NCBI RefSeq assembly: GCF_014642075.1 | Contig: NZ_BMIK01000002.1 | Location: 496,001-560,000 of the forward strand | Source of the DNA: Parapedobacter defluvii | Lineage (GTDB): Bacteria > Bacteroidota > Bacteroidia > Sphingobacteriales > Sphingobacteriaceae | DNA length: 64,000 nt | Direction: 5' to 3' | In this document: one piece after another, positions 9,568 through 62,279 of the stretch | How positions within the stretch are numbered: position 1 is the first letter of the stretch | How the letters are laid out: each line of letters begins with the position of its first letter | Notes under the pieces: model-generated | Told to the model about the DNA's origin: nothing | Database searches by the model: none | Seen by the model: the letters and a program-made list of their open reading frames with translations, nothing else | Program-made: the position numbers and the translations under genes

Positions 9568-9588
9568 ATACGACTACGTTTGATGATG

Positions 9589-9640
9589 AAGCCCTTGCCC
9601 GGCCAACCGGAGAGCAAGGGCTTCGTACTGTAAATGTACG
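9589..9640 (+). terminator. Compound stem-loop after fbaA
   Basis: A perfect 10-bp stem (9589-9598 with 9614-9623) encloses a smaller CCGG/CCGG hairpin with a CCAA loop. A second small stem (CGTAC 9624-9628 with GTACG 9636-9640) follows. There is no run of T after the main stem, so this may terminate weakly or protect the fbaA mRNA 3' end. Confidence 0.5.
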
Positions 9641-9644
9641 GGGC

Positions 9645-9679
9645 AATCTAAAATCGTCAATCTAAAATCTAAAATCAAA
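9645..9679 (+). repeat. Heptanucleotide repeat upstream of guaA (5 units)
   Basis: Five 7-bp units in register: AATCTAA, AATCGTC, AATCTAA, AATCTAA, AATCAAA. The run stops 4 bases before the guaA -7 box. Confidence 0.8.
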
Positions 9680-9683
9680 TCCG

Positions 9684-9691
9684 TACCTTTG
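9684..9691 (+). promoter_or_regulatory. -7 promoter box for guaA
   Basis: TACCTTTG, a full match to TAnnTTTG, ending only 4 bases before the ATG at 9696. Transcription would then start at or within a few bases of the ATG, so the guaA mRNA may be nearly leaderless. The heptad run occupies the -33 region. Confidence 0.6.
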
Positions 9692-9695
9692 GCCC

Positions 9696-11246
9696 ATGCC
9701 AGAAAAGATCATGATTCTTGATTTCGGCTCCCAATATACCCAATTGATTGCACGCCGGGTGAGGGAACTGAATGTTTATTGCGAAATCCATCCCTATAAT
9801 CACCTTCCTGAGTTCAACGAAACGATAAAAGGGGTTATCCTTTCAGGAAGTCCGTATTCGGTACGTCAGTCCGATGCACCTCAGGTCGACTTCCGGGCAC
9901 TCCAGTCCAAATTTCCTGTATTGGGTGTATGCTACGGTGCACAGTACATCGCACAGCATTCAGGCGGAGAGGTGGTGGCGTCGGAAATCCGCGAATACGG
10001 TCGGGCCAATCTCCATTTCGTGGATCATGCCAATCCGTTGTTAGCAGATGTTCCGGTAGATTCCCAGGTGTGGATGTCGCACGGCGACACCATTGCGGAT
10101 ATTCCGGCCGGCTTTGAGATCATTGCAAGTACAGACAAGGTGAAGGTGGCGGCATACCACGTAAAGGGTACCCAAACCTATGGTATCCAGTTTCACCCCG
10201 AAGTCACCCATAGTACCGACGGCACAACCCTGCTGAAGAATTTTGTCATCGACATCTGTGGCTGCACACCGTCCTGGACCGCCGACGCGTTTGTGGATAC
10301 AACGGTGGCTTCACTGAAAGAAAAATTGGGAGATGATCACGTGATCATGGCATTATCGGGAGGTGTAGATTCCACGGTTGCGGCTGTCTTGCTCCATCAG
10401 GCAATCGGTAAAAACTTGCACTGTATCTTTGTAGACCATGGCTTGCTGCGTAAGAATGAATACGAACAGGTGCTGGAGTCGTACCAGCATATGGGGTTGA
10501 ACATCAAGGGAGTAAATGCCAAAGATCGGTTTTACCAAAAGCTAGCGGGTGTGAGCGAACCTGAGCGGAAACGTAAAATTATCGGTGCGGCATTTATTGA
10601 TGAATTTGACGAGGCCGCACACGCCGTTCAGGCCGAACTTCCCGAGGGTGTAGCGGTTAAATGGCTCGGTCAGGGCACCATTTATCCGGATGTCATCGAA
10701 TCCATTTCCGTAAAGGGGCCTTCGGCTACTATTAAATCCCACCACAATGTGGGAGGGTTGCCCGATTTTATGAAACTGAAAGTTGTTGAGCCGCTCAACA
10801 CCCTGTTCAAAGACGAAGTGCGCAGAGTAGGGAAGGCATTGGGGGTAGCCCCCAGCATTTTGGGTCGGCATCCATTTCCCGGTCCGGGATTGGCGATCCG
10901 GATATTAGGCGAAATCACCGCCGAGAAGGTACGGATTTTGCAGGAAGCTGATGATATTTACATCCGCAACCTGCGTGAATCGGGTTGGTACGACAAGGTG
11001 TGGCAGGCAGGTACCATTTTCCTGCCGGTACAGTCGGTAGGGGTGATGGGAGATGAGCGTACCTACGAACATGTCGTCGCTTTGCGCGCGGTCGGCTCGT
11101 TGGATGGGATGACGGCAGATTGGACGCACCTGCCCTATGAGTTATTGGCAAAAATATCGAACGAAATAATCAATCACGTAAAGGGGATAAATAGGGTTGT
11201 ATATGATATCAGTTCAAAACCGCCGGCTACGATTGAATGGGAGTAA
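9696..11246 (+). CDS. guaA: GMP synthase (glutamine-hydrolysing)
   Basis: Final enzyme of GMP synthesis: amination of XMP using glutamine and ATP. 516 residues, normal length. N-terminal class I glutamine amidotransferase domain with the nucleophile Cys79 in [10 protein letters not shown] and the His167/Glu169 pair in [12 protein letters not shown]-pyrophosphatase domain with the PP-loop SGGVDS at 221-226. C-terminal dimerisation domain with [14 protein letters not shown] and the ending [14 protein letters not shown]. The last 44 bases overlap the start of the next gene, so the two are likely translationally coupled. Confidence 0.98.
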
Positions 11247-14431: not shown

Positions 14432-14437
14432 CATCTG

Positions 14438-14521
14438 TGCCCGGAGAGAGACTCGAACTCTCAAGGGACTGCTCCCAACGGCTTCTGAGACCGCAACGTT
14501 TACCAATTTCGCCATCCGGGC
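14438..14521 (-). tRNA. tRNA-Leu(CAG)
   Basis: 84-nt class II tRNA. The 7-bp acceptor stem GCCCGGA/TCCGGGC is perfect and the discriminator is A. The anticodon loop CTCAGAA gives anticodon CAG (complement of 14485-14487), reading CUG. A long variable arm with a GGGA/TCCC stem is typical of tRNA-Leu, and the T arm is GAGAG-TTCGAGT-CTCTC. CCA is not encoded. A terminator follows directly. Confidence 0.95.
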
Positions 14522-14556: not shown

Positions 14557-14564
14557 CAAATATA
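14557..14564 (-). promoter_or_regulatory. -7 promoter box for tRNA-Leu
   Basis: On the minus strand, TATATTTG, a full match to TAnnTTTG, 35 bases before the mature tRNA 5' end. The heptad array starts 7 bases further upstream and covers the -33 region. Confidence 0.6.
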
Positions 14565-14571
14565 TGATTTT

Positions 14572-14659
14572 AATTGACAATTGAAAATTGATAATTGAAA
14601 AAGACTATCAACTATCAATTATCAACTATCAACTATCAACTATCAACTATCAACTATCC
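14572..14659. repeat. Convergent heptad repeat upstream of tRNA-Leu
   Basis: Left part: four 7-bp units AATTGA(C/A/T/A) at 14572-14599. Right part: seven units TATCAA(C/T) at 14606-14654 plus a partial unit. The right-hand unit is the reverse complement of the left-hand unit with a one-base register shift, so the two runs face each other and could pair. The array ends 6 bases before the stop of the RND permease gene. Confidence 0.85.
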
Positions 14660-47903: not shown

Positions 47904-47943
47904 AAATGATTCGATTAAATTATAGTTAAACAGTTTATTTTAT

Positions 47944-48496
47944 GATAATTGATAATTGATAATTGATAATTGATAATTGATAATTGATAATTGATAATTG
48001 ATAATTGATAATTGATAATTGATAATTGATAATTGATAATTGATAATTGATAATTGATAATTGATAATTGATAATTGATAATTGATAATTGATAATTGAT
48101 AATTGATAATTGATAATTGATAATTGATAATTGATAATTGATAATTGATAATTGATAATTGATAATTGATAATTGATAATTGATAATTGATAATTGATAA
48201 TTGATAATTGATAATTGATAATTGATAATTGATAATTGATAATTGATAATTGATAATTGATAATTGATAATTGATAATTGATAATTGATAATTGATAATT
48301 GATAATTGATAATTGATAATTGATAATTGATAATTGATAATTGATAATTGATAATTGATAATTGATAATTGATAATTGATAATTGATAATTGATAATTGA
48401 TAATTGATAATTGATAATTGATAATTGATAATTGATAATTGATAATTGATAATTGATAATTGATAATTGATAATTGATAATTGATAATTGATAATT
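47944..48496. repeat. Heptanucleotide array, 79 perfect copies
   Basis: 553 bases of GATAATT repeated 79 times without a single change; I checked the phase at each 60-base line. It ends in GATGTTTGAT. It fills the gap between the end of the ZnuD-like receptor gene (48512) and the start of the His-rich lipoprotein (47903), both read on the minus strand, so it lies upstream of the lipoprotein gene. No G+C interruption. The true copy number in the cell may differ from the assembly. Confidence 0.95.
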
Positions 48497-48511
48497 GATG
48501 TTTGATGTATA

Positions 48512-50845: not shown

Positions 50846-50902
50846 TCATTGTCAATACCGCAAATTTCAACATAGTTGCGTTAATAAACAAATTAAATGC
50901 AA

Positions 50903-50910
50903 CAAAGTTT
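50903..50910 (-). promoter_or_regulatory. Probable -7 box for the ZnuD-like receptor gene
   Basis: On the minus strand AAACTTTG, one base off TAnnTTTG, 57 bases before the ATG. The heptad array begins 4 bases upstream of it. Confidence 0.4.
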
Positions 50911-50914
50911 TTTT

Positions 50915-51309
50915 AATGGACAATGGACAATGGATAATGGATAATGGACAATGGATAATGGATAATGGACAATGGATAATGGACAATGGATAATGGATAA
51001 TGGATAATGGACAATGGACAATGGATAATGGATAATGGACAATGGATAATGGACAATGGACAATGGATAATTATCAACTATCAATTATCAACTATCAACT
51101 ATCAACTATCAACTATCAATTATCAACTATCAATTATCAACTATCAATTATCAACTATCAATTATCAACTATCAACTATCAACTATCAACTATCAACTAT
51201 CAACTATCAACTATCAACTATCAACTATCAACTATCAACTATCAATTATCAACTATCAATTATCAACTATCAATTATCAACTATCAATTATCAACTATCA
51301 ACTATCAAG
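50915..51309. repeat. Composite convergent heptad array, 22 plus 33 units
   Basis: Left part 50915-51068: 22 units AATGGA(C/T). Right part 51072-51302: 33 units TATCAA(C/T), plus one variant unit TATCAAG. The last base of each unit switches between C and T; the other six are constant. The reverse complement of the right unit differs from the left unit by one base (AATTGAT against AATGGAT), so the two runs face each other. The final unit contains the TGA stop of xerD. Confidence 0.95.
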
Positions 51310-57501: not shown

Positions 57502-57617
57502 ATTAGATATTAGACATTAGATATTAGACATTAGACATGTGATGCTTCACAAATGGGGGATGTCTCATATCTCACATCTCATATCTCACATCTGATATCT
57601 CATATCTCACATCTCCT
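57502..57617. repeat. Convergent heptad runs between rsmI and serS
   Basis: Left run 57502-57536: five units ATTAGA(C/T). A 25-base spacer follows. Right run 57562-57617: eight units of the form ATCTCA(C/T), with three variants (GTCTCAT, ATCTGAT, ATCTCCT). The reverse complement of the right unit (ATGAGAT) differs from the left unit (ATTAGAT) by one base. The right run stops 3 bases before the serS -7 box. Confidence 0.88.
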
Positions 57618-57620
57618 TCC

Positions 57621-57628
57621 TATCTTTG
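57621..57628 (+). promoter_or_regulatory. -7 promoter box for serS
   Basis: TATCTTTG, a full match to TAnnTTTG. Transcription would start near 57635, about 80 bases before the serS ATG at 57718. Confidence 0.65.
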
Positions 57629-57717
57629 CGAGCACAAAATAAGCGAAATCGTCCTGATTTTCAAAAATGCATGACGGTTTGGTAGCTGATAAAGAAGAAT
57701 TAAACAGACAAAATAGC

Positions 57718-58989
57718 ATGTTGCAGGTTAATTATATCCGTGAAAACCGTGACCAAGTGATTGAACGCTTGATGGTCCGGAATTTTAAAGCGCTGGAATT
57801 GGTAGACGAGGTAATCGCACTCGATGAGCGTCGCAGGCAGTTGCAGACCGAGTCAGATTCCCTAGCGGCGGAGGCAAATGCGGCGGCACGGCAGATCGGT
57901 GAACTGATGCGTCAGGGGCGGCGTGACGAAGCGGAAGCGATCAAAGCCCGTTCCGGCGGATATAAGGAGCAACAGAAAAAACTAGCGGATGAACAGGCGG
58001 CTGTAGAAGCAGACCTGTATGAAAAGTTGGTGCTTCTACCCAATCTGCCTCATCACTCCGTACCGAAAGGTGTCGGCGCGGAAGATAACGAAGTGGTGTT
58101 GGAGTATGGCCATCGTCCCGAGCTCCCGGAGGATGCGTTACCTCACTGGGAACTGGCAGCCAAGTATGATATCATCGACTTTGAACTCGGTACCAAGGTG
58201 TCTGGGGCTGGTTTTCCGGTTTATAAAGGCAAAGGAGCCCGTCTGCAGCGCGCCATGATTAACTTTTTTCTCGATCGGGCAGCAGAGGCGGGCTATCAGG
58301 AGGTACAGCCTCCTATCCTGATCAACGAGGCATCTGGGTTTGGTACAGGGCAATTGCCCGACAAGGAGGGGCAAATGTATTACGTCGGCATTGACAATCT
58401 ATACCTGATTCCGACAGCCGAAGTGCCGGTAACCAATCTTTACCGCGATACCATCGTCAGGGAATCGGATTTTCCCATCAAAATGACGGCCTACACACCC
58501 TGTTTTCGCCGAGAGGCAGGATCTTACGGTGCCCATGTGCGTGGATTGAACCGCCTGCACCAATTCGATAAAGTTGAGGTTGTGCAGATCGTACACCCCG
58601 ACAGCTCCTATAAAGTACTGGAAGAGATGAGCACCTATGTGCAGTCTCTGCTGCAAGCATTGAACCTCCCGTACCGCGTACTGCGTCTTTGTGGAGGCGA
58701 CATGGGATTCACATCAGCGCTAACGTATGATATGGAGGTTTGGAGCGCTGCTCAGAAACGCTGGTTGGAAGTATCTTCCGTATCCAATTTCGAAACCTAC
58801 CAAAGCAATCGGCTGAAAGTGCGCTTTAAAGGGGAGAACGGTAAAACACAGTTAGCGCACACACTCAATGGCAGCGCACTGGCCTTACCCCGTATTTTGG
58901 CCTCTCTGTTGGAAGATAATCAGACGGCGGAGGGGATAAGAATACCGGAAGTACTGGTGCCCTATGCAGGGTTTGAATGGATAGACTGA
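57718..58989 (+). CDS. serS: Seryl-tRNA synthetase
   Basis: 423-residue class II aminoacyl-tRNA synthetase. I chose ATG 57718 because MLQVNYIRENRDQVIERLMV is the family's usual start; ATG 57667 would add a 17-residue extension that lies within the leader. N-terminal tRNA-binding coiled coil (about 25-110). Class II motif 2 is TPCFRREAGSYG and motif 3 is NGSALALPRILASLLEDNQ. The serine-binding TAEVPVTNLYRD is present. Confidence 0.97.
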   Translation: MLQVNYIRENRDQVIERLMVRNFKALELVDEVIALDERRRQLQTESDSLAAEANAAARQIGELMRQGRRDEAEAIKARSGGYKEQQKKLADEQAAVEADLYEKLVLLPNLPHHSVPKGVGAEDNEVVLEYGHRPELPEDALPHWELAAKYDIIDFELGTKVSGAGFPVYKGKGARLQRAMINFFLDRAAEAGYQEVQPPILINEASGFGTGQLPDKEGQMYYVGIDNLYLIPTAEVPVTNLYRDTIVRESDFPIKMTAYTPCFRREAGSYGAHVRGLNRLHQFDKVEVVQIVHPDSSYKVLEEMSTYVQSLLQALNLPYRVLRLCGGDMGFTSALTYDMEVWSAAQKRWLEVSSVSNFETYQSNRLKVRFKGENGKTQLAHTLNGSALALPRILASLLEDNQTAEGIRIPEVLVPYAGFEWID

Positions 58990-59574: not shown

Positions 59575-59706
59575 TATCTACAAATATTAAACAATGTTTA
59601 AACATATGGTTAACATAGGGTTAACATAGGGTTTATATAGGTAACATCTATAATAATACTCTATAAAATTATTGTATTTATATTTTTATTACTATATTTG
59701 TAGATA
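59575..59706. promoter_or_regulatory. Regulatory region: 13-bp inverted repeats around 11-bp direct repeats
   Basis: TATCTACAAATAT at 59575-59587 and its exact reverse complement at 59694-59706 flank 106 AT-rich bases. Between them lie 11-bp direct repeats: GGTTAACATAG at 59608-59618 and 59619-59629, GGTTTATATAG at 59630-59640 and a degenerate fourth. The right inverted repeat contains TATATTTG (59693-59700), with TTG 18 bases upstream (59672-59674), a promoter for the DUF6266 gene. The left one holds AATATTTG facing leftward. Repeats spaced one helical turn apart suit cooperative regulator binding. Confidence 0.6.
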
Positions 59707-62244: not shown

Positions 62245-62272
62245 TATCAGCTATCAGCTATCGGCTATCAGC
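62245..62272. repeat. Heptad repeat upstream of pncB (4 units)
   Basis: Four 7-bp units: TATCAGC, TATCAGC, TATCGGC, TATCAGC. It lies between the end of the SGNH hydrolase gene (62280) and the pncB ATG (62229), both on the minus strand. Confidence 0.75.
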
Positions 62273-62279
62273 TGTTTCC

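What the first reader, a model, noticed from the sequence alone, without database searches (positions are those of the whole stretch)
9645..9691. Heptad runs end 3 to 7 bases before -7 promoter boxes at four genes
At guaA (gap 4), serS (gap 3), tRNA-Leu (gap 7) and the ZnuD-like receptor (gap 4, weaker box) the heptads stop just upstream of the TAnnTTTG element and so take the place of the -33 region. The repeat sequence differs at each gene but the position is the same. This points to a role in promoter architecture, such as spacing, DNA bending or regulator binding, rather than random junk. Three units equal 21 bp, two helical turns.
Basis: partly seen in the sequence, partly recalled or inferred. 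Interest (0 to 1): 0.85.

Follow-up and report, generated by a model that had tools for sequence, protein, structure and literature searches.

The report
Spreading seven-base repeats abutting gene edges
Runs of seven-base repeats really do end just before three promoters here, but across about a third of this genome they mostly sit beside the ends of genes, so they look like fast-changing intergenic repeats that stop at working DNA rather than like promoter parts.

Summary
It fails at the ZnuD-like receptor, where the -7-like position aligned with relatives lies 45 bp from the array.

Genome-wide the distance rule fails. Of 31 start-facing array edges, 3 have an exact box within 10 bp. Arrays instead abut stop codons (25 of 37 edges within 15 bp or overlapping; null 17.6, p = 0.0005) and are scarce in divergent gaps.

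In nine congeneric genomes the guaA box is retained while the DNA upstream turns over. One relative (G008) carries the heptad types of guaA and serS swapped, at the same place and phase.

Best reading: lineage-specific intergenic heptamer repeats, of the kind described in Xanthomonas and Beggiatoaceae, filling spare DNA up to functional boundaries. Two things stay open: how one species-specific heptad "dialect" reaches many loci, and why five array-bearing promoters share one phase relative to the -7 box.

The parts
9645..9676 (-). AATCTAA-type heptad run before guaA (GATT strand is minus)
   Evidence: TRF row; sequence; its 25-mer pattern, one mismatch allowed, has 30 overlapping matches in congener G008 and 1 in G000
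9684..9691 (+). -7 box TACCTTTG of guaA
   Evidence: present in all nine congeneric guaA upstream regions
9696..11246 (+). guaA, GMP synthase
   Evidence: NF000848 774 bits
14572..14601 (+). AATTGAC/AATTGAA heptad arm next to the tRNA-Leu promoter
   Evidence: TRF
14604..14658 (-). inverted partner arm, TTGATAG on the minus strand, 6 bp after the RND permease stop codon
   Evidence: TRF; pair folds as RNA, z = -7.0
14557..14564 (-). -7 box TATATTTG of tRNA-Leu
   Evidence: exact box found before the tRNA in 8 of 9 congeneric loci; the ninth (L234) has an N gap
14437..14521 (-). tRNA-Leu (CAG)
   Evidence: ARAGORN
57502..57538 (+). ATTAGAC/ATTAGAT heptad arm, 3-4 bp from the start codon of the divergent rRNA methyltransferase gene
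   Evidence: TRF
57563..57615 (-). TCTCATA/TCTCACA heptad arm before serS
   Evidence: TRF
57621..57628 (+). -7 box TATCTTTG of serS
57718..58989 (+). serS; conserved start is M18 of the first-ATG ORF
   Evidence: TIGR00414 begins at residue 18; three relatives have in-frame stops upstream
50914..51071 (+). TGGAYAA heptad arm upstream of the ZnuD-like receptor
   Evidence: TRF, 22.6 copies; of 6 congeneric orthologues 5 have no run upstream and 1 (G002) has only an 18-bp run of another unit in the same gap
51072..51308 (-). inverted partner arm, TTGATAR on the minus strand, reaching the xerD stop codon
   Evidence: TRF, 33.9 copies; XerD
50861..50868 (-). -7-like position of the ZnuD-like gene aligned with relatives, 45 bp from the array edge
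47943..48499 (+). 79.6-copy TGATAAT array after the ZnuD-like stop codon, 100% matches
   Evidence: TRF; absent from 6 of 6 congeneric orthologues
62245..62273 (-). TATCAGC heptad run between two minus-strand genes
   Evidence: TRF

Best explanation
The heptads are expansion-prone, lineage-specific intergenic simple-sequence arrays with a 7-nt unit. I infer that they grow and shrink by slippage or unequal recombination, and that a few heptad types are copied between loci within a species. Selection removes them from coding DNA, from the -7 box and from operators, so the survivors fill the spare DNA between one gene's stop codon and the next functional element. Where that element is a -7 box, the array ends a few bp before it. 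I take the promoters of this phylum to depend mainly on the -7 box, so that loss of a -33 element is tolerated. Shown here: distribution, turnover, boundary abutment and orientation bias. Inferred: slippage, copying between loci, and neutrality at promoters.
For: Period-7 excess, and no run at the same threshold in 3 resamplings of the noncoding DNA. 34 of 42 clusters are intergenic; stop-facing edges within 15 bp or overlapping are 25 of 37 against a null of 17.6 (p = 0.0005 in 2000 placements), while start-facing edges are 12 of 31 against 12.5. Divergent gaps hold 3 of 34 clusters against 28% of intergenic bases (p = 0.012; convergent 6 of 34 against 9%, p = 0.12). 4 of 297 boxes have a run upstream. 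Upstream of the ZnuD-like gene 5 of 6 relatives have no run and 1 has a short run of another unit; the 80-copy array is absent from 6 of 6. The serS promoter has clear runs in 2 of 9 genomes; in four others (G003, G004, G006, G007) the box lies 6 bp from the divergent start codon, with no room for an array (my reading). Overlapping GAYA-type matches differ sharply within the genus: 342 (about 76 of them from the 80-copy array), 137, 15, 10, 5, 1, 0, 0, 0, while G008 has 30 AATC-type matches and G000 one. TTG at the -33 position occurs in only 80 of 313 boxed promoters, and PMC7366714 (passages read) states that no -33 motif could be identified in Flavobacterium johnsoniae. Rehm et al. 2015, PMC4692102 (sections 13 and 16 plus passages read) report the same layout for GGGAATC heptads: near stop codons on the coding strand, scarce between divergent genes, no regulatory role found.
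Against: Three promoter-adjacent runs fall in one 64-kb window and none with an exact box within 10 bp elsewhere in 2 Mb of the same genome, a clustering I cannot explain. At guaA and serS two species have runs at the same place and in the same phase with different units. At tRNA-Leu a 7-bp-phased ATT pattern next to the box is visible in most of 8 aligned relatives (my reading). Pure slippage does not explain why one species repeats the same heptad type at many unrelated loci.
Confidence: 0.65

Rival explanations
1. The promoter-adjacent heptads are working promoter elements: they place T-containing blocks at -23 and -16 from the -7 box, in register with sigma factor or polymerase contacts, replacing a -33 element.
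For: Five of five array promoters in two species have T at -23 and -16, and four of them have TCT at -16..-14 although the heptads differ. T is enriched at -23/-22 and -16/-15 in 283 other promoters, with T(-23) and T(-16) jointly at 0.244 against 0.187 expected.
Against: Only 3 of 297 boxes have such a run within 10 bp. Most relatives lack it at the same genes. Lag-7 periodicity is not raised in promoters generally. The joint-T figure is one of five pairs looked at, and the guaA and serS cases in the two species share bases next to the box, so they are not five independent events.
Confidence: 0.13
2. The arrays are RNA-level 3'-end elements: inverted pairs (GAY arm then RTC arm) form hairpins between genes that end or protect transcripts, and single arrays are pairs that lost an arm.
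For: Stop-facing GAYA edges within 60 bp read GAYA in the sense direction in 14 of 17 cases. In G008 the GATT strand is sense in 6 of 7 stop-adjacent edges (my reading). The tRNA-Leu pair folds with z = -7.0. Rehm et al. 2015 report the same strand rule.
Against: Many arrays are single. The ZnuD-like pair is no more stable than shuffles (z = -0.15), the serS pair is modest (z = -2.3) and the guaA run has no fold (z = 0.26). A separate strong hairpin already stands behind the aldolase gene.
Confidence: 0.14
3. An active process writes a species-specific heptad vocabulary into intergenic DNA, for example a templated polymerase or directed gene conversion, rather than slippage of local sequence.
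For: Within one genus species favour different heptads at many unrelated loci. The same interrupted 25-mer pattern (one mismatch allowed) recurs in 30 of 151 family genomes of 8 genera. No flanking sequence is shared beyond about 10 bp, so whole-element transposition is unlikely.
Against: The reversed-pattern control also matches in 13 of the 151 genomes, and in some family genomes as often as or more often than the pattern, so part of the sharing is plain simple-sequence DNA. No reverse transcriptase domain (PF00078) was found in G000, which has the most GAYA matches in the genus, although G003, G004, G007 and G008 have one. SbcD does not track arrays (present in G000, no hit over the cut-off in G007 or G008), and MutS is present in all nine.
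Confidence: 0.12

Closest known systems
GGGAATC / GGGGA(T/C)T heptameric repeats of Xanthomonas and Nostoc (Rehm et al. 2015, PMC4692102; sections 13 and 16 and passages read)
   Same: Head-to-tail 7-nt units, mostly intergenic, close to stop codons on the coding strand and upstream of starts on the non-coding strand, rare between divergent genes, inverted pairs in Xanthomonas, neighbours hypothetical or of general metabolism, no regulatory role found.
   Different: Units here are mostly A+T-rich (GAYANNN, AATCNNN and others), not G-run repeats; several unit types coexist; the arrays I compared turn over between species, whereas most Xanthomonas repeats lie between the same genes in the two genomes compared there.
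TAACTGA heptad repeats of Beggiatoaceae, Cyanobacteria and five Bacteroidetes (MacGregor 2015, PMC4679880; abstract, passages and sections 12 and 23 read)
   Same: Intergenic heptad arrays with patchy distribution; relatives with shorter array-free gaps; other heptamer repeats in the same Bacteroidetes gaps. TAACTGA read around is CTGATAA, which fits the GAYA frame (my reading).
   Different: In the Beggiatoaceae genome one unit dominates and sits next to start codons, with a translational role proposed; here stop codons are the favoured side.
Long simple-sequence repeats of Mrazek et al. 2007 and cyanobacterial heptanucleotide repeats (not read; as cited in the two papers above)
   Same: Heptanucleotides are the most common long unit in many genomes; polymerase slippage proposed.
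   Different: No Sphingobacteriaceae case stood in the listings of my searches.
Repeat tracts that tune promoter spacing in phase variation (not read; as cited in PMC4679880 and PMC4692102)
   Same: Short tandem repeats near promoters.
   Different: Here the run lies upstream of the -7 box with no TTG at the -33 position, and the three genes are housekeeping.

Membership tests
Intergenic heptameric simple-sequence repeats (Rehm/MacGregor/Mrazek kind) | Head-to-tail 7-nt units well above chance | tested here: met
   42 period-7 runs against 1-3 at periods 5, 6, 8, 9 and 10, with 10 at period 11 and 7 at period 12; 0 in each of 3 resamplings
Intergenic heptameric simple-sequence repeats (Rehm/MacGregor/Mrazek kind) | Mostly intergenic | tested here: met
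   34 of 42 clusters; 8 lay mostly in called coding DNA
Intergenic heptameric simple-sequence repeats (Rehm/MacGregor/Mrazek kind) | Close to stop codons, scarce in divergent gaps (Rehm) | tested here: met
   25 of 37 against 17.6; 3 of 34 against 28%
Intergenic heptameric simple-sequence repeats (Rehm/MacGregor/Mrazek kind) | One strand sense after stops, antisense before starts (Rehm) | tested here: met
   stop side 14 of 17; start side 7 of 11, weak; G008 stop side 6 of 7 by my reading
Intergenic heptameric simple-sequence repeats (Rehm/MacGregor/Mrazek kind) | Quadruplex-forming G-runs (Rehm subtype only) | tested here: not met
   the unit types listed for G000 are mostly A+T-rich without GGG runs; some GGGG units occur in other family genomes
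Promoter-architecture element before the -7 box | Distance preference to -7 boxes genome-wide | tested here: not met
   3 of 31 start-facing edges have an exact box within 10 bp, all in the window; 1 more has a 5-of-6 match; sample is 36% of the genome
Promoter-architecture element before the -7 box | Conserved with the promoter among relatives | tested here: not met
   guaA: clear runs in 2 of 9 genomes, looser 7-bp phasing in 2 more by eye; serS: 2 of 9, plus a 1-2 unit trace in G005
Promoter-architecture element before the -7 box | Fixed phase relative to the box | tested here: inconclusive
   5 of 5 have T at -23 and -16, found after the fact and not independent
Promoter phase-variation repeat | Length differs between strains and switches expression | not testable with these tools
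   one genome per species is held
Reverse-transcriptase-made tandem repeats (DRT10-like; PMC12632851, search listing only) | A reverse transcriptase in the genome | tested here: not met
   no PF00078 match in G000; matches in 4 of 9 congeneric genomes, G007 and G008 among them
Mobile element or MITE | Shared sequence outside the arrays or defined ends | tested here: not met
   29 chains: no common flank beyond about 10 bp; TAAT[TG] just before the first unit in 11 of 29

The most novel reading that the evidence does not exclude
Each array-rich species of this genus carries its own heptad 'dialect' that is actively copied into intergenic DNA at many loci. Where a copy lands before a -7 box, only the phase that puts T at -23 and -16 survives, so arrays with different sequence become interchangeable upstream promoter elements, as the guaA/serS exchange between two species suggests.
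Probability: 0.15. Interest if true: 0.75.

Novelty: new member of a known kind. Interest (0 to 1): 0.4.

Why it matters
It shows how a sequence that looks regulatory at three promoters can be a by-product of repeats that stop wherever DNA is needed. It also adds a Sphingobacteriaceae case, with several coexisting unit types and fast turnover, to the poorly understood heptamer repeats. The same strand-and-stop-codon rule was reported in Xanthomonas and Nostoc, so an unexplained general rule about heptads may be testable in a genus with cultured members whose species range from array-rich to nearly free of the two repeat patterns searched.

Tried and rejected
General promoter role: rejected by box and edge counts and by the absence of lag-7 excess in 283 promoters. 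ZnuD-like as fourth case: rejected by alignment with relatives. Residual heptad signal throughout intergenic DNA: none (lag 7 at 0.2712, other lags from 2 to 12 between 0.270 and 0.281, after masking). Reverse transcriptase source: rejected for G000. SbcD or MutS loss as cause: no match to array counts. Transposon with fixed flanks: not seen. Universal RNA hairpin: ZnuD-like pair z = -0.15, guaA z = 0.26.

Weak points of the counts: genes were called by a simple codon-pair script of mine, so start codons are approximate. Run thresholds differ (>= 10, >= 11, >= 9 in the box test, where control lags 5, 6, 8, 9 and 10 gave 0, 2, 3, 3 and 1 boxes against 4 for lag 7). The 8 mostly-coding clusters were dropped before the edge counts, and at least one (C5 35704) may really lie just upstream of a start. 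Pattern counts are of overlapping matches, so long arrays count many times. G008 regions were chosen by the AATC pattern: 15 regions gave 12 clusters, one was dropped for coding overlap, and 4 regions gave no run at my threshold. The G007 and G004 stretches were not analysed.

Full report
What was checked. GuaA is 94% identical to that species, and congener G003 has the same guaA upstream sequence as the P. koreensis record. guaA, serS, a TonB receptor of the haem/zinc kind (below the curated cut-offs), an RND permease, xerD and a class II aldolase were named by NCBIfam; the tRNA-Leu came from ARAGORN.

The observation. At guaA, serS and tRNA-Leu a heptad run ends 5-7 bp before an exact TAnnTTTG box by my boundaries. 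At the ZnuD-like receptor the array edge is 45 bp from the -7-like position that aligns with relatives; a conserved GTTGC...GCAAC-like block lies between. TAnnTTTG is a real promoter signal here: within 60 bp of starts it occurs 281 times on the sense strand against 50 on the other strand.

Chance. In 1.664 Mb of the own genome, period-7 runs number 42 against 1-3 at periods 5, 6, 8, 9 and 10, with 10 at period 11 and 7 at period 12; resampled noncoding DNA gave none in three trials. The heptads are therefore real.

Genome-wide position. In 2.064 Mb (36%) I found 42 clusters, 34 of them intergenic. Stop-facing edges lie within 15 bp, or overlap, in 25 of 37 cases (null 17.6, p = 0.0005); start-facing edges in 12 of 31 (null 12.5, not significant). 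Divergent gaps hold 3 of 34 clusters although they make up 28% of intergenic bases (p = 0.012); convergent gaps hold 6 of 34 against 9% (p = 0.12). Of 31 start-facing edges, 3 have an exact box within 10 bp, all in the window, and one more has a 5-of-6 match; the other 27 have neither. In congener G008, chosen by its own heptad pattern, 1 of 11 intergenic arrays has a box nearby (serS, gap 7), and 7 of 11 stop-facing edges lie within 10 bp of, or overlap, a stop codon.

Comparison among nine genomes of the genus. The guaA -7 box is present in all nine while the DNA upstream is not conserved. Mean column identity rises from 0.47 at -60..-21 to 0.98 over the box and what follows in the 8 genomes aligned; G001 was missed by my script's motif but is shown. 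Clear runs at guaA occur in G000 and G008; G002 and G003 show looser 7-bp phasing by eye. At serS, clear runs occur in G000 and G008 and a one-to-two-unit trace in G005; in G003, G004, G006 and G007 the box lies 6 bp from the divergent start codon, leaving no room for an array (my reading). G000 has AATCTAA units at guaA and TCTCATA units at serS; G008 has the reverse. At the permease/tRNA-Leu gap G000 carries TTGATAG units, while G002 and G007 carry TTAATGG-type units. Upstream of the ZnuD-like gene 5 of 6 relatives with the gene have no run and G002 has an 18-bp run of another unit; the 80-copy array behind the gene is absent from 6 of 6.

Sequence of the units. 18 of 34 clusters have GAYA every 7 bp, while about 11% of intergenic heptad rings contain it. 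Overlapping four-unit GAYA matches vary from 342 to 0 among nine congeners (reversed control 22 in G000), and 65 of 151 family genomes have some; in several family genomes the reversed control is as frequent or more so. An AATC-type 25-mer pattern, one mismatch allowed, recurs in 30 of 151 genomes, 30 times in G008 and once in G000; its reversed control matches in 13 genomes. So at least G000 and G008 have distinct dialects. Inverted pairs often join two unit types (TTGAYAR with TGGAYAR; my reading). Stop-side edges read GAYA in the sense direction in 14 of 17 cases; start-side edges read the complement in 7 of 11.

Mechanism. The simplest account is slippage or recombination of a 7-nt unit, some copying of units between loci, and selection that clears arrays from anything needed. 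That gives arrays which abut stop codons on one side and, where a promoter is next, the -7 box on the other. The -33 region can be lost because it is weak: TTG is found there in 80 of 313 boxed promoters, against 28 of 313 ten bases further up. PMC7366714 (passages) says that no -33 motif could be identified in F. johnsoniae, and PMC9723704 (passages) gives TAnnTTTG as the sigma-A -7 box in F. psychrophilum.

What does not fit. Five array promoters in two species share T at -23 and -16 from the box, four of them with TCT at -16..-14. Those positions are T-rich in ordinary promoters too. This was noticed after the fact, and neighbouring bases are shared between the two species, so I count it as a lead. 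Also unexplained: three promoter-adjacent arrays in one window and none with an exact box within 10 bp elsewhere in the sample, and how dialects spread. A reverse transcriptase is not the answer in G000, although four congeners have one.

Known relatives. Rehm et al. 2015 (PMC4692102; sections 13 and 16 and passages read) and MacGregor 2015 (PMC4679880; abstract, passages and sections 12 and 23 read) describe the same kind of repeat in other bacteria. The listings of my searches of open papers showed no Sphingobacteriaceae or Parapedobacter case (only the top rows of the larger result sets were shown).

Noticed in passing
47943-48499: A perfect array of about 80 TGATAAT units between the ZnuD-like stop codon and the next gene's start; absent from six relatives that have the gene. 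A long array behind the permease gene in G007 breaks into an N gap.
   Followed up: partly
59587-59641: A period-11 repeat (AACATAGGGTT). Period 11 is the next most frequent unit length after 7 in the genome sample (10 runs; period 12 has 7).
   Followed up: no
50846-50913: Conserved GTTGC...GCAAC block (right half varied in two genomes) with a -7-like box upstream of the ZnuD-like receptor in the seven genomes that have the gene, possibly a metal-regulator operator.
   Followed up: partly
57667-57717: The first-ATG start of serS is probably too early: the family profile begins at residue 18 and three relatives have in-frame stops upstream.
   Followed up: yes
9576-9640: Strong RNA hairpin (z = -7.2) after the aldolase gene and before the guaA heptads; likely a terminator.
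   Followed up: partly
L270-L283 and window arrays: The strand rule for heptads (one strand sense after stop codons, antisense before starts) appears in two dialects here and was reported for Xanthomonas and Nostoc heptads of unrelated sequence.
   Followed up: partly
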